From: Firmicutes bacterium M10-2 | GTDB lineage: Bacteria; Bacillota_I; Bacilli_A; Erysipelotrichales; Erysipelotrichaceae | Direction of reading: 5' to 3' | Length of the DNA stretch: 64,000 nt | Assembly (NCBI GenBank): GCA_000403415.2 | Contig: KE159681.1 | Coordinates: 26,956-90,955, forward strand | Part shown: positions 5,541 through 45,786 of the stretch, in pieces | Numbering within the stretch: the first letter of the stretch is position 1 | How the letters are laid out: every line of letters starts with the position of its first letter | The notes under the pieces: generated by a model | What the model saw: only the letters and a program-made list of their open reading frames with translations | The model's database searches: none | What the model was told of the DNA's origin: nothing | Position numbers and translations under genes: made by a program

Positions 5541-6030
5541 AAAAACAGAAATTTTAAAATAAATAAGTCGTAAAAATCAATCACCAAAAAGTGAAATACG
5601 ATTTCTATCCTGCTTATATCGTGTGTATCGTTTATTCGGTTTCCATCCTTTTCGGGCAAAGATATCATGAGCACGCAAACAAGAAGCGCAATGCATACAG
5701 AATCTTTTCATACAGTGTTTCGGGCTCTTTTTCAGTGATTCGTTTTTTTGTCATTCATTTTCCTCTTTTAATGCCCACATCCATGCAAATCAATAGAAAA
5801 AAGATAAAATTCCTTTCTTTATTATCATAAGTATTTATTTATACAATTTTTATTACGGAACCTAATCAATAAAATTCAAGTAAAAATGCACAACAGGTAA
5901 TTTTTATTCCCAATATGCATCTTTATTTACTTTTAATCCATAGAGGTATTTGTTATTCTTATATTAATAAAAGAATACACTATGGAGTTTTATGATTACT
6001 AAGTCTTATTCAGGAGAAATATGTCAATCA

Positions 6031-6337
6031 CCCATACTCTAAAGAGTAATGGGCTTGCAAAAGTCCATAATTGACTAGCCTAAGCCTTAACGGGCTACGT
6101 TATGTAAGAATAGCGGAATGATACTTATCAACCGTAAATAGTTACCGGTGAGTATACAGCCTAACTCGCTGCTCTAAGGACTGTCGTTAAACCGATCTGA
6201 GGGGTAGGATCCGTGCGTCAGTCAAAGACTTCGTCTTAAAACCTTACATAACATTGGCGAAGGCTGCTTACAGTCTATGTTATTCCATAATGTAGACTGC
6301 GTTATAATTCGATTATCAAGAAAGGAGTGCCATTCGA
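6031..6337 (+). ncRNA. Candidate omega RNA (HEARO-type) of a decayed IscB element
   Basis: About 300 non-coding bases sit directly upstream of an iscB N-terminus, where the HEARO/omega RNA of IscB elements is encoded. They are more GC-rich than the flanks and rich in short hairpins, for example CCCATACTCT pairing with AGAGTaATGGG at 6031-6053 and AGAC-TTC-GTCT near 6229. The first hairpin resembles a subterminal hairpin of IS200/IS605-type elements, so it may mark the left end. In active systems the guide lies at the 5' end of the RNA, next to the element end. Identification rests on position and visible folding, not on a covariance model. Confidence 0.6.
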
Positions 6338-6553
6338 ATGGTATACGTATTGGATCAATCAGGACAGCCGCTTATGCCAACCGAACGGCATGGTAAAGTA
6401 AGACATTTACTCAAATCAGGCAAAGCAAAAGTTATAAAGCGCTGTCCGTTCACAATTCAGTTACTATATAACAGTACACATTATACACAAGACATTACAC
6501 TGGGCGTAGACGCCGGCAGTAAACGGATCGGAGGAAAACCACAATTTATTTAG
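6338..6553 (+). pseudogene. iscB: Truncated IscB (RNA-guided nuclease) N-terminus
   Basis: This 71-codon frame encodes the IscB N-terminal PLMP domain (PLMP at residues 11-14). It continues into the RuvC-I segment with ITLGVDAGSKRIG, where Asp58 would be the first catalytic residue. Intact IscB proteins run to roughly 400-500 residues with a bridge helix, HNH domain, RuvC-II and RuvC-III. All of these are missing because the reading frame diverges right after RIG and stops. AAGGAGTG provides a good ribosome site. The fragment cannot be a nuclease. It is a decayed OMEGA element with its 5' RNA region still recognisable. Confidence 0.85.
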
Positions 6554-6591
6554 GGCATCCCCAATAAATAATGATCGATAAGGAGCTGCAA

Positions 6592-6750
6592 ATGACAAAA
6601 AAAAGAATATTGACCATTCTGATTTTGATCTTAATTTTTATGGGAATCATGGCAGGTTACTTCCATTCTTTCCATTCTCAAAATATAGATGAAGATCAAA
6701 AAATGTACTCATTGGACGAATATAAAAAGAAATTCAGCCATACGGAATAA
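6592..6750 (+). CDS. Small single-pass membrane protein, function unknown
   Basis: A 52-residue ORF follows AAGGAGCTG, a strong ribosome site 5 bases before the ATG. Residues 5-21 are a hydrophobic helix of mostly Ile and Leu. A charged tail of about 30 residues ends in YKKKFSHTE. A terminator-like hairpin follows directly, which supports a real gene. It lies just past the iscB remnant. I do not recognise the family. Confidence 0.55.
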   Translation: MTKKRILTILILILIFMGIMAGYFHSFHSQNIDEDQKMYSLDEYKKKFSHTE

Positions 6751-6895: not shown

Positions 6896-8764
6896 TTATT
6901 GTTTGATTTTATTTACTCGAAGAGCACGCATTGCGTTCAGGATTGCCAAGAAGCTGACTCCGACATCCGCAAATACAGCAGCCCACATATTCGTGATTCC
7001 AAGAGCGGCAAGAACAAGAATTGCCACTTTGATCAATAAAGCGAAAACAATGTTTTCATAAACGATGCGCAACGTTTTCTTGCTGATCTGCATTGCTGTC
7101 ACAATTTGCGAAAGCTGATCTTCCATCAACACAATATCGGCTGCTTCAATGGCTGCATCACTTCCAAGACCTCCCATTGCGATTCCGACATCGGCCACTG
7201 TCAATACTGGTGCATCATTGATTCCATCACCGACAAATGCGACTCTTTCCTTCCCTTGTTTTTCGGAAAGTATTTTCTCCAAATCTTTCACTTTTTGATT
7301 TGGAAGCAACTGCGCATGAACTTCCGTGATGCCGATTTTTCCAGCTACTTTTTGAGCAACCTTCTCGCTATCTCCTGTCAGCATCACGAACCGCTTGATT
7401 CCATAGTGCCGCAAAAGGTCGATCGCTGCTTTGGAGTCTTCCTTAATTTCATCGGCAATTTCGATCATGCCGGCATATACTCCATCCACACTAACATAAA
7501 CACAAGTTCCGAACCCATTTCCTTCCGGAAGATTCTCAATCTTTTGGGAAGCCATCATCTTGACGTTTCCCACACATACTTTATGTTGATCTACCCTTGC
7601 TTCGATTCCATGGCCTGCAATCTCCTGAATATCGCTGACATCATTCATTTTCAGATCGGAAGAGGCAGCCTTCCGAATCGATAAAGCAATCGGATGTGTG
7701 GAATGAGATTCGACTTTTGCGGCAAGATCCAACAAATCTTCATTGCTCATACCGATAGCCTGCACATTTGTAACTTTGAAATTTCCCTTTGTGATCGTTC
7801 CCGTTTTATCGAATACGATTGTTTTTACCTCAGCAAGCTGCTGCAAATAGTTGCTTCCTTTGACAAGGATCCCTTTTCTGCTCGCACCGCCGATTCCTCC
7901 GAAAAACGAAAGCGGAACCGAAATGACCAGCGCGCAAGGACAAGAAGTAACTAAGAACGAAAGCGAACGATACACCCAGACGCTCCATTGTCCGTCAAGC
8001 AACGAAGGAATGATTGCCAAAGCAAGCGCCATAAATACAACGATCGGTGTATAGATCCGCGCAAATTTGGTGATAAATTGTTCTGATCTCGATTTTTTAT
8101 TTGTCGCATTTTCCACAAGATCCAAAATTTTCGCAACAGTCGAATCTTCATAAGGTTTGGAAACTTTGACATAGAGCACACCTGACTGATTGATGCATCC
8201 GGAAATCACTTCGCTTCCCGAACGAATGTTTCGAGGAACCGATTCACCGGTTAAAGCCGAAGTATCCAAGGAGGATTCGCCTTTTTCCACAATTCCGTCT
8301 AACGGAACTCTCTCGCCTGGATTAACAACGATGATTTGTCCAACCTTAATTTCTTCCGGATCAACTTGCTCTATTTTTCCATCGACTTCGATATTGGCAA
8401 ATTCAGGACGAATATCCATCAATGCAGCAATCGACTTTCTCGATTTATTGACCGCATACGACTGGAACCATTCTCCGACTTGATAAAACAGCATAACCGC
8501 AACCGCTTCACTGTATTCTCCTAACACAAGAGCACCGATCGAAGCAATAGACATCAAAAAATTTTCGTCAAACACTTGTCCATGTGCGATATTTTTTGCC
8601 GACTTTTCCAGTACATCATAGGAAATATAAAGATACGGAATGCCAAATAATACGAATTGGATCCAAGACGTTGGATCCACAGTGTGCTTGATTACAATTG
8701 CGAGAACATACAGCCCAAACGTGATCAAGATCCGTTTGAGCATCTTTTTTTGTTTTTTCGTCAT
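6896..8764 (-). CDS. Heavy-metal P1B-type ATPase (Zn/Cd/Co exporter, CadA/ZntA type)
   Basis: This 622-residue protein has all P1B hallmarks: TGES in the actuator domain (about residue 172), the intramembrane CPC metal motif (about 273), the phosphorylated Asp in DKTGT (about 317), the STHP His-Pro motif and GDGINDAP (about 512). CPC with this arrangement fits Zn, Cd or Co export driven by ATP. Unlike many relatives it has no N-terminal HMA domain. That domain is the separate small gene 12 bases upstream. The operator upstream of that gene and the ArsR gene at 11472 point to metal-induced expression. Metal specificity is inferred. Confidence 0.93.
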   Translation of the reverse strand: MTKKQKKMLKRILITFGLYVLAIVIKHTVDPTSWIQFVLFGIPYLYISYDVLEKSAKNIAHGQVFDENFLMSIASIGALVLGEYSEAVAVMLFYQVGEWFQSYAVNKSRKSIAALMDIRPEFANIEVDGKIEQVDPEEIKVGQIIVVNPGERVPLDGIVEKGESSLDTSALTGESVPRNIRSGSEVISGCINQSGVLYVKVSKPYEDSTVAKILDLVENATNKKSRSEQFITKFARIYTPIVVFMALALAIIPSLLDGQWSVWVYRSLSFLVTSCPCALVISVPLSFFGGIGGASRKGILVKGSNYLQQLAEVKTIVFDKTGTITKGNFKVTNVQAIGMSNEDLLDLAAKVESHSTHPIALSIRKAASSDLKMNDVSDIQEIAGHGIEARVDQHKVCVGNVKMMASQKIENLPEGNGFGTCVYVSVDGVYAGMIEIADEIKEDSKAAIDLLRHYGIKRFVMLTGDSEKVAQKVAGKIGITEVHAQLLPNQKVKDLEKILSEKQGKERVAFVGDGINDAPVLTVADVGIAMGGLGSDAAIEAADIVLMEDQLSQIVTAMQISKKTLRIVYENIVFALLIKVAILVLAALGITNMWAAVFADVGVSFLAILNAMRALRVNKIKQ

Positions 8765-8776
8765 AAGAAAAACCTC

Positions 8777-8995
8777 TTAGAAAAAGATTTCAGCATCATC
8801 ATCTACTTTGCATGCACACGCTTTCGCCTCTTTCATAATCGCTTCATGATCGGCACTGTCATCCGTATCGATTACAAGTTTTTGGGTCATGAAATTCACT
8901 CTCGCACTGTTGACCCCTTCGATTTTCGAAATGGCATCTTCGATTTTCGCAGCGCAGTTTGCACAATCCACTTCTACTTTGTATGTTTTTTTCAT
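8777..8995 (-). CDS. Stand-alone HMA metal-binding protein
   Basis: The 72-residue protein is one heavy-metal-associated domain with the metal-binding DCANCAAK motif near the N-terminus (Cys at about 11 and 14). The tail has an extra CACKVDDDAE cluster that could add ligands. It is encoded immediately before the P1B ATPase under a strong AGGAGG site. It probably delivers metal to the pump or replaces the pump's missing N-terminal domain. The Asp-x-x-Cys context resembles Zn/Cd pumps rather than copper chaperones. Confidence 0.88.
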   Translation of the reverse strand: MKKTYKVEVDCANCAAKIEDAISKIEGVNSARVNFMTQKLVIDTDDSADHEAIMKEAKACACKVDDDAEIFF

Positions 8996-9079: not shown

Positions 9080-9112
9080 AAAAAAAAGCAGAAGATTTGA
9101 AACCTTCTGCTT
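9080..9112 (-). terminator. feoB terminator
   Basis: GCAGAAG and CTTCTGC form a stem followed on the minus strand by eight T residues. The stem adjoins the feoB stop codon. The T-run ends one base from the -35 element of the next operon. Confidence 0.85.
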
Positions 9113-11135
9113 ATAAGCCGAATAAACACCCGACTTGATACACTACAAAAGTAATTATCCATGCAATGATTAATTGAAATCCTGCTGTTTTCCACATATA
9201 CAAGGCAGAGCCTGACTCTTTCTTGATCGTAGCAAGAGATGCAAAACATGGAATATACAGCAAACAGAACAACATTAAACAGTACGCATTGAGCGATCCA
9301 AAACCCATATTTTGCAAAATAGTCGCCATTCCCGACATACCTGTAGCTGAGTTGAGGTTGCTGATACCAAACAATACGCCCATGCTTGAAACAACGACTT
9401 CCTTTGCCGAAATTCCGGCAAGAAGCGCCACAGCAATTTGCCAAAAACCAAGTCCAATCGGAACAAGAAGCGGAACGAGAATCTTTCCAATGGAAGCCGC
9501 GAACGAAATCGTAACATCTTCCGTAAATCCTTGAAATCCGAAATTCAAAAGCAGCCACAAAACGATGGATGCGAAGAAAATGGTCGTTCCCGCCTTGCTC
9601 AAGAAATCTTTGACCTTTTCCCACACGTAAATGTATACGGTATACAAACTTGGCATCTTATAGATCGGTAATTCGATCAGTAAAGGTTTAATTTCTTTTT
9701 CGTCTTGCATTTTCGATGTGATCCATGCAATGCCTAACGCTACAATAATTCCGATCAAATACATCGAATAGGCAGCCCACATTGCGTGTTTTGCGAAAAA
9801 CATTCCCGAAAACAAGATATAAGTCGGTAATTTAGCCGAACAGGACATAAACGGTGTAATGAGCATGACTCGCCGACGATCCTTGACCGATTCAAGAGAG
9901 CGCGAAGCCATAATGGCCGGTACCGTGCAGCCAAACCCCAATACCATAGGAATAAAGGCCCGCCCCGAAAGACCGAGCTTTCCCATGATATCATTCATGA
10001 CATAAGCGACACGTGCCATGTAGCCCGAATCTTCAAGAAAAGCCAGTGCGATAAACAAAATCGTGATATTGGGCAAGAATGTGAGAATCCCGCCCACCCC
10101 GGCAATGATTCCTTCCGTCACAAGACGAATGAGCCAGTCGGACACATGGATCGAAGTCATAAATTGAGTTACTACGCCACTGAACCATTCGACAAACAGT
10201 TCCAAGTAACCGCTGATCCAATCCCCAAGTGTAAAGGTCAACATAAAGACAATCGCCATGATCACAAAGAAAAATAAGATTCCCAGCACCGGATGGGTCA
10301 AAAGAGAATCAATCTTATCGGTAAGGTGTTCTTTTTGCTCTTTTCCAAGAAGCACTTCATGCATGATTTCTTCGATATAATTATATTTTTCATTAATGAT
10401 CTCGTCAGCAATTCCGGTATAGACAATAGGTTTGAGATCGATATTTGGATACTGCTTTTTGATGGCTTCGTCATCTTCAAGAAGCTTTAAAGCGATCCAA
10501 CGAGGATCAGATACATTTTCTGGCAAAAGCTGTTCGACATCGCCAATCTTTTCTTCGATATTGCTTGTATACATCATTGCGTATGGACGTACTGCTTCTT
10601 CATGAATTTCCCGTGGCTGATGGTTTTGGGCATTTGCGTCTTCCGCTTGATGGAGTGCGGCATGCATCAATGCTTTAAGTCCTTGCTTCTTTCTGGCAGT
10701 GACCGGCACGCAAGGAACTCCTAAAATTTCCGAAAGTCGATGAAGGTCGAGATCAATTCCCCGCTTTTCGACAATATCCATCATATTCATCGCCAGAACA
10801 ACCGGTTTTTTTAGTTCCAGCAGTTGAAGAGTCAAATATAAAGACCTTTCCAAAGAGGAAGAATCGACGACATCGACAATGACATCCACTTCGTCGGATA
10901 CAATAAAATCACGGGATACTTGCTCTTCCATCGTATAGGAAGAAAGCGAATACGTTCCGGGAAGGTCCACTAGATGTATGGTTGAACCATGTTCCTGAAT
11001 GGCTCCTTCCATTCGTTCGACTGTCACACCGGGCCAGTTGGCTACTTTTAAATTAGCGCCTGTATACGCATTGAACAAGGTAGTCTTTCCGCAGTTCGGA
11101 TTTCCGATAAACGCAATCGTAATGTCTTTTTTCAT
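9111..11135 (-). CDS. feoB: Ferrous iron transporter FeoB
   Basis: The 674-residue protein imports Fe(II) across the membrane. Its N-terminal G domain has the P-loop GNPNCGKTT (residues 11-19), DLPGT (G3) and NMMD (G4). A helical linker follows, then the membrane part with two Gate regions and a FeoB C-terminal region. Length is normal for Gram-positive FeoB. The start overlaps the feoA stop by 4 bases, so the two are translationally coupled. The gene closes with its own terminator. No Fur box was clear upstream. Confidence 0.96.
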   Translation of the reverse strand: MKKDITIAFIGNPNCGKTTLFNAYTGANLKVANWPGVTVERMEGAIQEHGSTIHLVDLPGTYSLSSYTMEEQVSRDFIVSDEVDVIVDVVDSSSLERSLYLTLQLLELKKPVVLAMNMMDIVEKRGIDLDLHRLSEILGVPCVPVTARKKQGLKALMHAALHQAEDANAQNHQPREIHEEAVRPYAMMYTSNIEEKIGDVEQLLPENVSDPRWIALKLLEDDEAIKKQYPNIDLKPIVYTGIADEIINEKYNYIEEIMHEVLLGKEQKEHLTDKIDSLLTHPVLGILFFFVIMAIVFMLTFTLGDWISGYLELFVEWFSGVVTQFMTSIHVSDWLIRLVTEGIIAGVGGILTFLPNITILFIALAFLEDSGYMARVAYVMNDIMGKLGLSGRAFIPMVLGFGCTVPAIMASRSLESVKDRRRVMLITPFMSCSAKLPTYILFSGMFFAKHAMWAAYSMYLIGIIVALGIAWITSKMQDEKEIKPLLIELPIYKMPSLYTVYIYVWEKVKDFLSKAGTTIFFASIVLWLLLNFGFQGFTEDVTISFAASIGKILVPLLVPIGLGFWQIAVALLAGISAKEVVVSSMGVLFGISNLNSATGMSGMATILQNMGFGSLNAYCLMLFCLLYIPCFASLATIKKESGSALYMWKTAGFQLIIAWIITFVVYQVGCLFGL

Positions 11136-45320: not shown

Positions 45321-45357
45321 TTGACATTCTCCCACGATTGAAATCGTGGGATTCCCT
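45321..45357 (-). mobile_element. IS200/IS605-type element end
   Basis: CCCACGATTgaAATCGTGGG (45331-45350) is a near-perfect hairpin. With its flanks (minus strand GGGAATCCC...GGGAGAATGTCAA) it looks like the right end of IS200/IS605-group elements. It abuts the broken SDR gene. No transposase is left. Confidence 0.65.
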
Positions 45358-45786
45358 ATCCTGTATCATTTTATATGTGATTTTCGGTTTCGGCTGCTAT
45401 TTCTTTGCACGCTTCGCTATTACCTCCAACGGCACTTTTCCTTCACCTTCGCCAAACACGATCTTTACACTGTCGATTTTTTGCGGGACAGTAGCACCAC
45501 CGTCTCCACATGGCTCGATACGTGCTGATTGATGTCGCAATATCGGAACATATCACCCTATTTTGTGCCGATTTTCGATTGTTCTCGGAAACATATCTAT
45601 CGGCACATTTTGCCCTTATCCAATCCGCAACCTAAACCCTTCTCGTTGTCGGAAACATATCGAGTTTTCCCAACTGCTACTATATATAAGCAGCTCATTT
45701 GCCGCCACTGTCTCAAGCCGGGACTAGCCTTTTAGGGAATTGGTCATCGTAGAACTATTCCCACATAGAAGCCATCGTCTCAACCT
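45358..45786. other. Non-coding remnant between IS end and defence operon
   Basis: No supported gene. Base composition is higher in GC than around it. TCGGAAACATATC occurs three times, once with one base missing (near 45,545, 45,593 and 45,650). GGGAAT...ATTCCC (45,738-45,763) forms a weak stem. The stretch may be the inner part of the IS605-type element, including its RNA region. Confidence 0.4.

What the first reader, a model, noticed from the sequence alone, without database searches (positions are those of the whole stretch)
6020..6555. Decayed IscB/OMEGA element with its RNA scaffold still present
A PLMP-RuvC-I IscB fragment (Asp58 kept, rest lost) has a 300-base, hairpin-rich, GC-shifted upstream region exactly where omega RNA is encoded. 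A hairpin at 6031 may mark the element end. A relic with conserved RNA but no nuclease is either a fossil or an orphan guide RNA that another IscB in the genome could use.
Basis: partly seen in the sequence, partly recalled or inferred. Interest (0 to 1): 0.75.

Follow-up and report, generated by a model that had tools for sequence, protein, structure and literature searches.

The report
Truncated IscB element, guide RNA intact
This is the front part of a mobile element that has lost its DNA-cutting gene but kept the RNA that would guide it; intact sisters and many relatives sit exactly between a host gene's ribosome-binding site and its start codon and seem to bring a replacement for that site, which would let them live in front of essential genes.

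Summary
Observation confirmed. Window 6023-6271 is a complete HEARO/omega RNA (RF02033, 125.4 bits). 6338-6553 encodes IscB residues 1-65 (PLMP, RuvC-I, Asp58 kept), then six other residues and a stop. The genome has four more copies: C and D with a full iscB, B full except for a masked stretch, E internally deleted. The window copy is a recent deletion, about 99% identical to intact copies, so its intact RNA is no proof of selection. Its own right end is lost.

The larger finding lies outside the given coordinates. The four sisters sit, in sense, between a Shine-Dalgarno-like (SD) stretch and the ATGA start of a host ORF; the window copy's left flank (AGGAG-AAATAT) fits. Of 55 elements with a defined right end in 21 genomes, 27 meet a start-site rule, against 7.1% of background ATGA. 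Host genes include rnpA, pth, topA and nadK. In 38 of 55 an SD of the element lies about 54 nt before the start codon, about 10 nt if the terminal hairpin is taken out. I infer that such elements restore translation of the gene they split. No experiment; the SD/site correlation is not significant (p 0.08-0.12).

The parts
6007..6022 (+). Left flank: predicted 16-nt guide of the omega RNA (host DNA), with SD-like AGGAG at 6012-6016
   Evidence: Sequence; position relative to HEARO start. That the guide is the ~16-17 nt 5' of the scaffold is from passages of PMC9640706.
6023..6271 (+). Complete HEARO / omega RNA scaffold; 6023 is the element's left end
   Evidence: RF02033, 125.4 bits; left end by comparison of five copies
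6338..6532 (+). iscB fragment, residues 1-65 (PLMP and RuvC-I, Asp58 at 6509-6511); 98% identical over 65 aa to three copies
   Evidence: homology ends about 6532
6533..6570 (+). Stretch of unknown origin: six extra codons and stop (6551-6553) of the 71-aa ORF; no family right end
   Evidence: No second full-length match in the own genome; no right-end model match; fold no better than shuffles (z -0.62)
6571..6750 (+). Host ORF of 59 aa starting ATGATC; likely (not proved) the gene in front of which the element inserted; a second in-frame ATG at 6592 has its own SD (AAGGAG, 6580-6585)
   Evidence: no DNA match in 60 genomes apart from its own

Best explanation
The window holds a recently truncated copy of a mobile IscB (OMEGA) element. 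SHOWN: left end and complete omega RNA remain; iscB after residue 65 and the family's right end are gone; two full iscB genes (C, D), and very probably a third (B), exist in the genome; the four sister copies sit in sense between an SD-like stretch and an ATGA that opens a host ORF; the same arrangement is enriched among relatives; many relatives carry an SD and then the element's terminal hairpin just before the start codon. INFERRED: (1) The family targets, or survives best at, translation start sites: ATGA is target and TAM; the host promoter upstream transcribes guide plus omega RNA (the guide lies outside the element); and the element's own SD, brought near the start codon by the terminal hairpin, keeps the host gene translated. 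(2) The guide is thus the host gene's own leader, and IscB with that RNA would cut an allele that has lost the element. (3) The window's orphan RNA could be loaded in trans by IscB from sister copies and guard its own site; lacking a right end, it should no longer be able to move.
For: Omega RNA and fragment. Sister copies and their sites. Start-site enrichment: 27 of 55 elements against 7.1% of 2137 background ATGA; stricter rule 21 of 50 against 5.2% of 1959; against gene starts plus intergenic ATGA only, expectation 16%, p 1.7e-8. Real start codons: 15 of the 18 host ORFs with an NCBIfam match (of 38 scanned) align within 13 residues of both N-termini, among them rnpA, pth, topA, nadK, hslV, kdpA, hpf. 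Named plasmids with public annotation: 5 of 12 have an annotated gene starting at the junction. SD of at least 5 nt at the right end in 38 of 55 (chance about 10%) and 15 of 21 genomes; distance to start codon 49-66 nt in sequence, median 10 nt with the hairpin removed. Precedent: T4 genes 38 and 25, spacing 22 to 5 and 27 to 11 nt (passage of PMC3014915). TAM NTGA or NTG of the relative IsrB (passages of PMC9581776).
Against: 28 of 55 elements fail the start-site rule. Right-end SD and start-site insertion are not significantly linked (29 of 38 against 9 of 17, p 0.12; 22 of 35 against 6 of 17, p 0.08). Elements are related, so p-values are only guides. In 7 of 12 annotated plasmids no gene starts at the junction. 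SDs before sister copies B and C are weak (4 nt). The window copy itself lacks the right end, and nothing shows its RNA is made.
Confidence: 0.55

Rival explanations
1. Plain fossil (for the window copy): a dead, recently deleted copy whose RNA is intact only because too little time has passed; it does nothing. This is compatible with the family-level reading.
For: About 99% identity to full copies; right end lost; no promoter-like site found just upstream on the + strand, the only + strand candidate being at 5640-5668; two private changes in the RNA.
Against: RNA complete with a score inside the range of the other copies; intact iscB in the genome and a left flank that looks like a gene leader.
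Confidence: 0.5
2. Site pattern by survival only: the transposase prefers ATGA anywhere, insertions inside genes are lost, and the SD-like stretch before the hairpin is part of a transposase recognition site or chance, not a working SD.
For: Many elements are not at start codons; the link between right-end SD and start-site insertion is not significant; the SD can pair with CCTCC in the hairpin in some folds.
Against: Enrichment remains about threefold over the 16% expected when gene interiors are left out. Insertion between SD and start codon of rnpA, pth, topA or nadK should be harmful unless translation is restored (essentiality is general knowledge). The six G005 elements keep the hairpin without the SD, so the hairpin does not need it.
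Confidence: 0.3
3. The orphan RNA has become a regulator of other genes, its SD-like guide steering IscB to other translation start regions.
For: The guide looks like an SD region; C21:25109 matches 14 nt of guide plus ATGA with 2 mismatches.
Against: No exact second site; 10 sites with up to 3 mismatches, one of them the locus itself, against 5 for the reversed pattern. No dead effector was found; the sister IscB keeps RRXRR and HNH domains.
Confidence: 0.04

Closest known systems
IscB / OMEGA elements with HEARO omega RNA (RF02033)
   Same: Omega RNA, N-terminal IscB, left end, 99% identical full-length sisters in the genome
   Different: The window copy lacks most of iscB and the right end. 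Insertion at SD|ATGA start codons with an own SD and hairpin was in no paper found by my searches.
Standalone omega RNAs and non-autonomous IS200/IS605-type deletion derivatives (recalled from the literature, not checked)
   Same: Omega RNA without nuclease gene; 11 of 55 relatives here are under 1000 nt without a full iscB but with both ends
   Different: The window copy has no right end, so it is a truncation rather than a mobilisable short form
SD-bridging hairpins of phage T4 genes 38 and 25 (passage of PMC3014915)
   Same: A stem between a distant SD and the start codon brings the spacing to 5-11 nt there, to a median of 10 nt in relatives here
   Different: Here the stem is the end of a transposon; no function tested. 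Not found in the window copy.
OMEGA nickase IsrB (passages of PMC9581776)
   Same: Relative of IscB with an NTGA or NTG TAM, which is start-codon-like
   Different: Nickase without HNH; the passages I saw do not discuss start codons

Membership tests
HEARO / omega RNA (RF02033) | Score above the curated gathering threshold over the whole model | tested here: met
   125.4 bits against 83, model 1-211 of 211
IscB RNA-guided endonuclease | PLMP and RuvC-I N-terminus | tested here: met
   PF14239 75.2 bits over residues 2-65; Asp58 present
IscB RNA-guided endonuclease | Full protein with bridge helix, RuvC-II, HNH, RuvC-III and TAM-binding part | tested here: not met
   Stop after 71 aa; 75.6 bits against a cut-off of 175 in the window copy; sisters C and D 376.6 and 376.7 bits
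Mobilisable IscB element | Left end as in other copies | tested here: met
   Identical left boundary in five copies
Mobilisable IscB element | Right-end hairpin | tested here: not met
   No match of model R1 near 6533-6570; best window match is 15.4 bits at 45322
Mobilisable IscB element | Y1 transposase available | tested here: inconclusive
   One intact 137-aa Y1 transposase frame at C12:572510-572857 and one broken one; no link to these ends shown
Start-site insertion with SD-bridging right end (family-level pattern) | SD in the left flank, ATGA start codon at the right junction | tested here: inconclusive
   Left flank AGGAG with 6 nt to the boundary and ATGA at 6571 fit, but the right end is lost and no empty site was found
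T4-type SD-bridging hairpin | Stable stem between SD and start codon in the window copy | tested here: not met
   z -0.62; 51 of 200 shuffles fold as well
T4-type SD-bridging hairpin | Stem needed for translation of the downstream gene (sister copies and relatives) | not testable with these tools
   Needs a reporter experiment

The most novel reading that the evidence does not exclude
IscB/omega RNA transposons are translation-start specialists. They insert between SD and ATGA start codon, use the host promoter to make guide plus omega RNA, and restore host translation with their own SD held near the start codon by the transposon's terminal hairpin (or, in some, by overlap of the iscB stop with the host ATGA). 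The start codon is then target site, TAM and translation start at once, so the RNA-guided nuclease polices translation starts even of essential genes; shortened forms keep only the omega RNA and this translation module and borrow IscB in trans.
Probability: 0.5. Interest if true: 0.8.

Novelty: new variant of a known kind. Interest (0 to 1): 0.6.

Why it matters
If right, it would explain why such elements are tolerated in compact genomes: they replace what they break. It would also explain how an RNA whose guide lies outside the element gets transcribed, tie the TAM (ATGA, NTG) to start codons, make natural guides predictable as host gene leaders, and give a ready test system for translation starts bridged by a hairpin. 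The window copy by itself is an ordinary truncated member with an intact guide RNA.

Tried and rejected
Right end of the window copy as a second kind of bridging hairpin: considered because GGAGG, an inverted repeat and ATGA follow in order, but the fold is no better than shuffles, the right-end model does not match there and no second full-length match exists in the own genome. Empty site in relatives: the 330 nt from 6571 matched only the own genome among 60 searched. Orphan guide with another target: no exact site. Link of right-end SD with start-site insertion: not significant, so not claimed.

Rows dropped: the right-end model was run on 90 sources, 86 oriented elements and four extra loci. 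Of its 80 matches I carried 59 into; 4 of these had no junction codon (L217, L228, L110, L206), leaving 55. Not carried, 21 matches: four in the extra loci L060, L061, L063, L071 (copies partly held elsewhere), and weak, partial or off-end matches in L232 (2), L208, L108 (2), L243 (2), L192, L105, L242, L244, L224 (2), L187 (2), L210, L119; L242 and L243 may be real ends with TTGA junctions. One search set aside 5 of 55 as undecidable; one search set aside 3 of 55 (under 20 nt of left flank) for its table. The junction rule (first A/GTGA or A/GTGG after the hairpin) was set after seeing the own copies, and the model was built from 29 right ends of these same elements. The 18-of-21-genomes count uses ORFs of at least 48 codons, a slightly looser rule than 27 of 55.

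Two surveys of larger groups added little: 7 of 395 genomes of the class and 6 of 392 of the phylum had matches, nearly all already seen; the one new genome (G528) was fetched but ends at a contig edge.

Literature: ten searches of an open-licence library; one search was swamped by unrelated papers. None of the listings showed a paper on IscB elements at start codons. The main 2021 IscB paper is not held. That HEARO elements insert before ATGA or GTGA, and that standalone omega RNAs are known, I recall and could not check. Of PMC9755519, PMC12286853, PMC13180657, PMC9581776, PMC9640706 and PMC3014915 I saw passages only.

Full report
WHAT IS THERE. A complete HEARO (omega) RNA lies at 6023-6271 on the + strand (125.4 bits, full model, gathering score 83). 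After 66 nt, 6338-6553 encodes 71 aa, of which residues 2-65 match the N-terminal part of IscB. The last six residues and the stop do not.

OTHER COPIES. The genome (2.41 Mb in 22 contigs, window at C1:26956-90955) has five HEARO matches of 122.6 to 130.2 bits and five matches to the window's IscB fragment. Copies C and D hold a 416-codon iscB (RRXRR and HNH domains in C). Copy B does too, apart from a stretch that reads N, so its integrity is not fully checked. Copy E (675 nt) has lost the middle of iscB but keeps both ends. The window copy matches the others at 98.7-99.4% (E 96% over 374 nt) up to 6532 and then stops; the family's right end is absent. It is a young deletion, which weakens any claim that its RNA is kept by selection. 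One intact and one broken Y1 transposase frame are in the genome.

INSERTION SITES OF THE OWN COPIES. In B, C, D and E the element begins right after an SD-like stretch (4, 4, 6 and 7 nt of AAGGAGGT) and ends right before ATGA, which opens ORFs of 315, 190, 289 and 70 codons. The window copy's left flank ends in AGGAG-AAATAT; joined to the ATGA at 6571 it gives a normal SD spacing and a 59-codon ORF. But the 38 nt between 6532 and 6571 are of unknown origin, a second in-frame ATG at 6592 has an SD of its own, and no relative was found, so for the window copy this is an inference.

IS IT GENERAL? 25 of 315 genomes of the order have HEARO matches; I took stretches from most of these and from the genomes of 18 further loci. 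Comparison of copies showed right ends followed by ATGA in G000, G041, G042, G153 and G182, and by ATGG in 5 of 6 G005 copies. A covariance model of the right-end hairpin (29 sequences) gave 80 matches in 90 sources; 55 elements in 21 genomes have a usable junction. In 27 of 55 the junction codon opens an ORF of at least 50 codons and the left flank has at least 4 nt of SD, against 7.1% of 2137 ATGA in the flanks. If the junction must also be the first in-frame start, it is 21 of 50 against 5.2% of 1959. Among gene starts (76) and other intergenic ATGA (391) the expectation is 16%, p 1.7e-8. 18 of 21 genomes have at least one such site by a slightly looser rule. The elements are related, so the p-values are guides only, and 28 of 55 do not meet the rule.

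ARE THEY REAL START CODONS? Of 38 host ORFs of 48 codons or more scanned, 18 match an NCBIfam family at E 1e-8 or better, and in 15 of these 18 the match starts within 13 residues of the start of both protein and profile: ribonuclease P protein, peptidyl-tRNA hydrolase, topoisomerase I, NAD kinase, HslV, KdpA, manganese pyrophosphatase, hibernation factor, the SCIFF peptide, YhbY and others. The other three are L216, L197 (an Lgt, match from residue 30) and L012. Several of these genes are essential in model bacteria (general knowledge). In annotated plasmids, 5 of 12 records have an annotated gene beginning at the junction: Finegoldia, Cetobacterium, Pseudoalteromonas and Shewanella exactly, Anoxybacillus within an ATGATGATGA run; 7 of 12 do not. 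Two of these five right ends (Finegoldia, Shewanella) were placed by eye, since the model gives no convincing match there.

HOW COULD THE HOST GENE BE TRANSLATED? 38 of 55 elements carry at least 5 nt of AAGGAGGT just before the terminal hairpin (about 10% expected in random windows), in 15 of 21 genomes. This SD is 49-66 nt from the start codon in sequence, but a median of 10 nt when the hairpin is taken out (10th to 90th percentile 7-12). T4 genes 38 and 25 use this device, 22 to 5 and 27 to 11 nt (PMC3014915, passage). L207 and L203 instead have an SD-like stretch after the hairpin, and in others the iscB stop overlaps the host ATGA (L223; Shewanella and Pseudoalteromonas records). The six G005 elements have the hairpin but no SD, and none passes the stricter start rule. 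Against the idea: the link between SD and start-site insertion is not significant (29 of 38 against 9 of 17, p 0.12; 22 of 35 against 6 of 17, p 0.08), and in 2 of 3 relatives' ends folded whole the SD is paired.

MECHANISM. The guide of IscB is the RNA 5' of the scaffold, about 16-17 nt (PMC9640706, passages); by position it is host leader here. Since it lies outside the element, a host promoter must supply it; a sense insertion in a 5' leader would do so. The relative IsrB uses NTGA or NTG as TAM (PMC9581776, passages). All this is inference from anatomy. For the window copy, with intact IscB genes in the cell, its RNA could act in trans on its own empty site, but nothing shows that it is made. 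I put 'does nothing' at about even odds.

SHORT FORMS. 11 of 55 elements are under 1000 nt and hold no full iscB, with both ends kept; some stand before hpf, topA, hslV and pth. In most of these what is kept is the RNA and the SD-hairpin end; L202 and L221 have little or no SD.

VERDICT. The start-codon anatomy of the family is the part worth following. Searches of the held open-licence literature gave nothing on it, which does not prove that it is unpublished.

Noticed in passing
L193:801-1141; L107 (353 nt); L202 (358 nt); L187 and L188 (462 nt); L214 (509 nt); L221 (447 nt): Short omega-RNA-only elements with both ends and no full iscB in relatives; L193, L107 and L214 stand before hpf, topA and hslV.
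   Followed up: partly
L254:2800-2875; L255:2800-2860: In gammaproteobacterial plasmids the iscB frame runs through the terminal hairpin and its stop overlaps the annotated start of the next gene.
   Followed up: partly
L087, L088, L090-L093 (G005): Elements with the same hairpin but no SD, 5 of 6 with an ATGG junction, not at first in-frame starts: a natural contrast to the SD-bearing ends. L060 of the same species has GGAGG at its right end and a start-like ATGAAA after it.
   Followed up: partly
window 45322-45362 +: Weak match to the right-end model (15.4 bits, E 0.11); no HEARO match nearby at gathering threshold.
   Followed up: no
window 6896-8764 -, 8777-8995 -, 9111-11135 -: Heavy-metal P-type ATPase, then a small metal-binding-domain-like ORF and a large FeoB-like ORF; the last two are named from their sequence by eye only.
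   Followed up: no
L131 (G000:C12:572510-572857); L132 (G000:C1:292418-292573): One intact and one stop-broken Y1 transposase frame in the genome, far from the five IscB copies; whether the intact one moves them is unknown.
   Followed up: no
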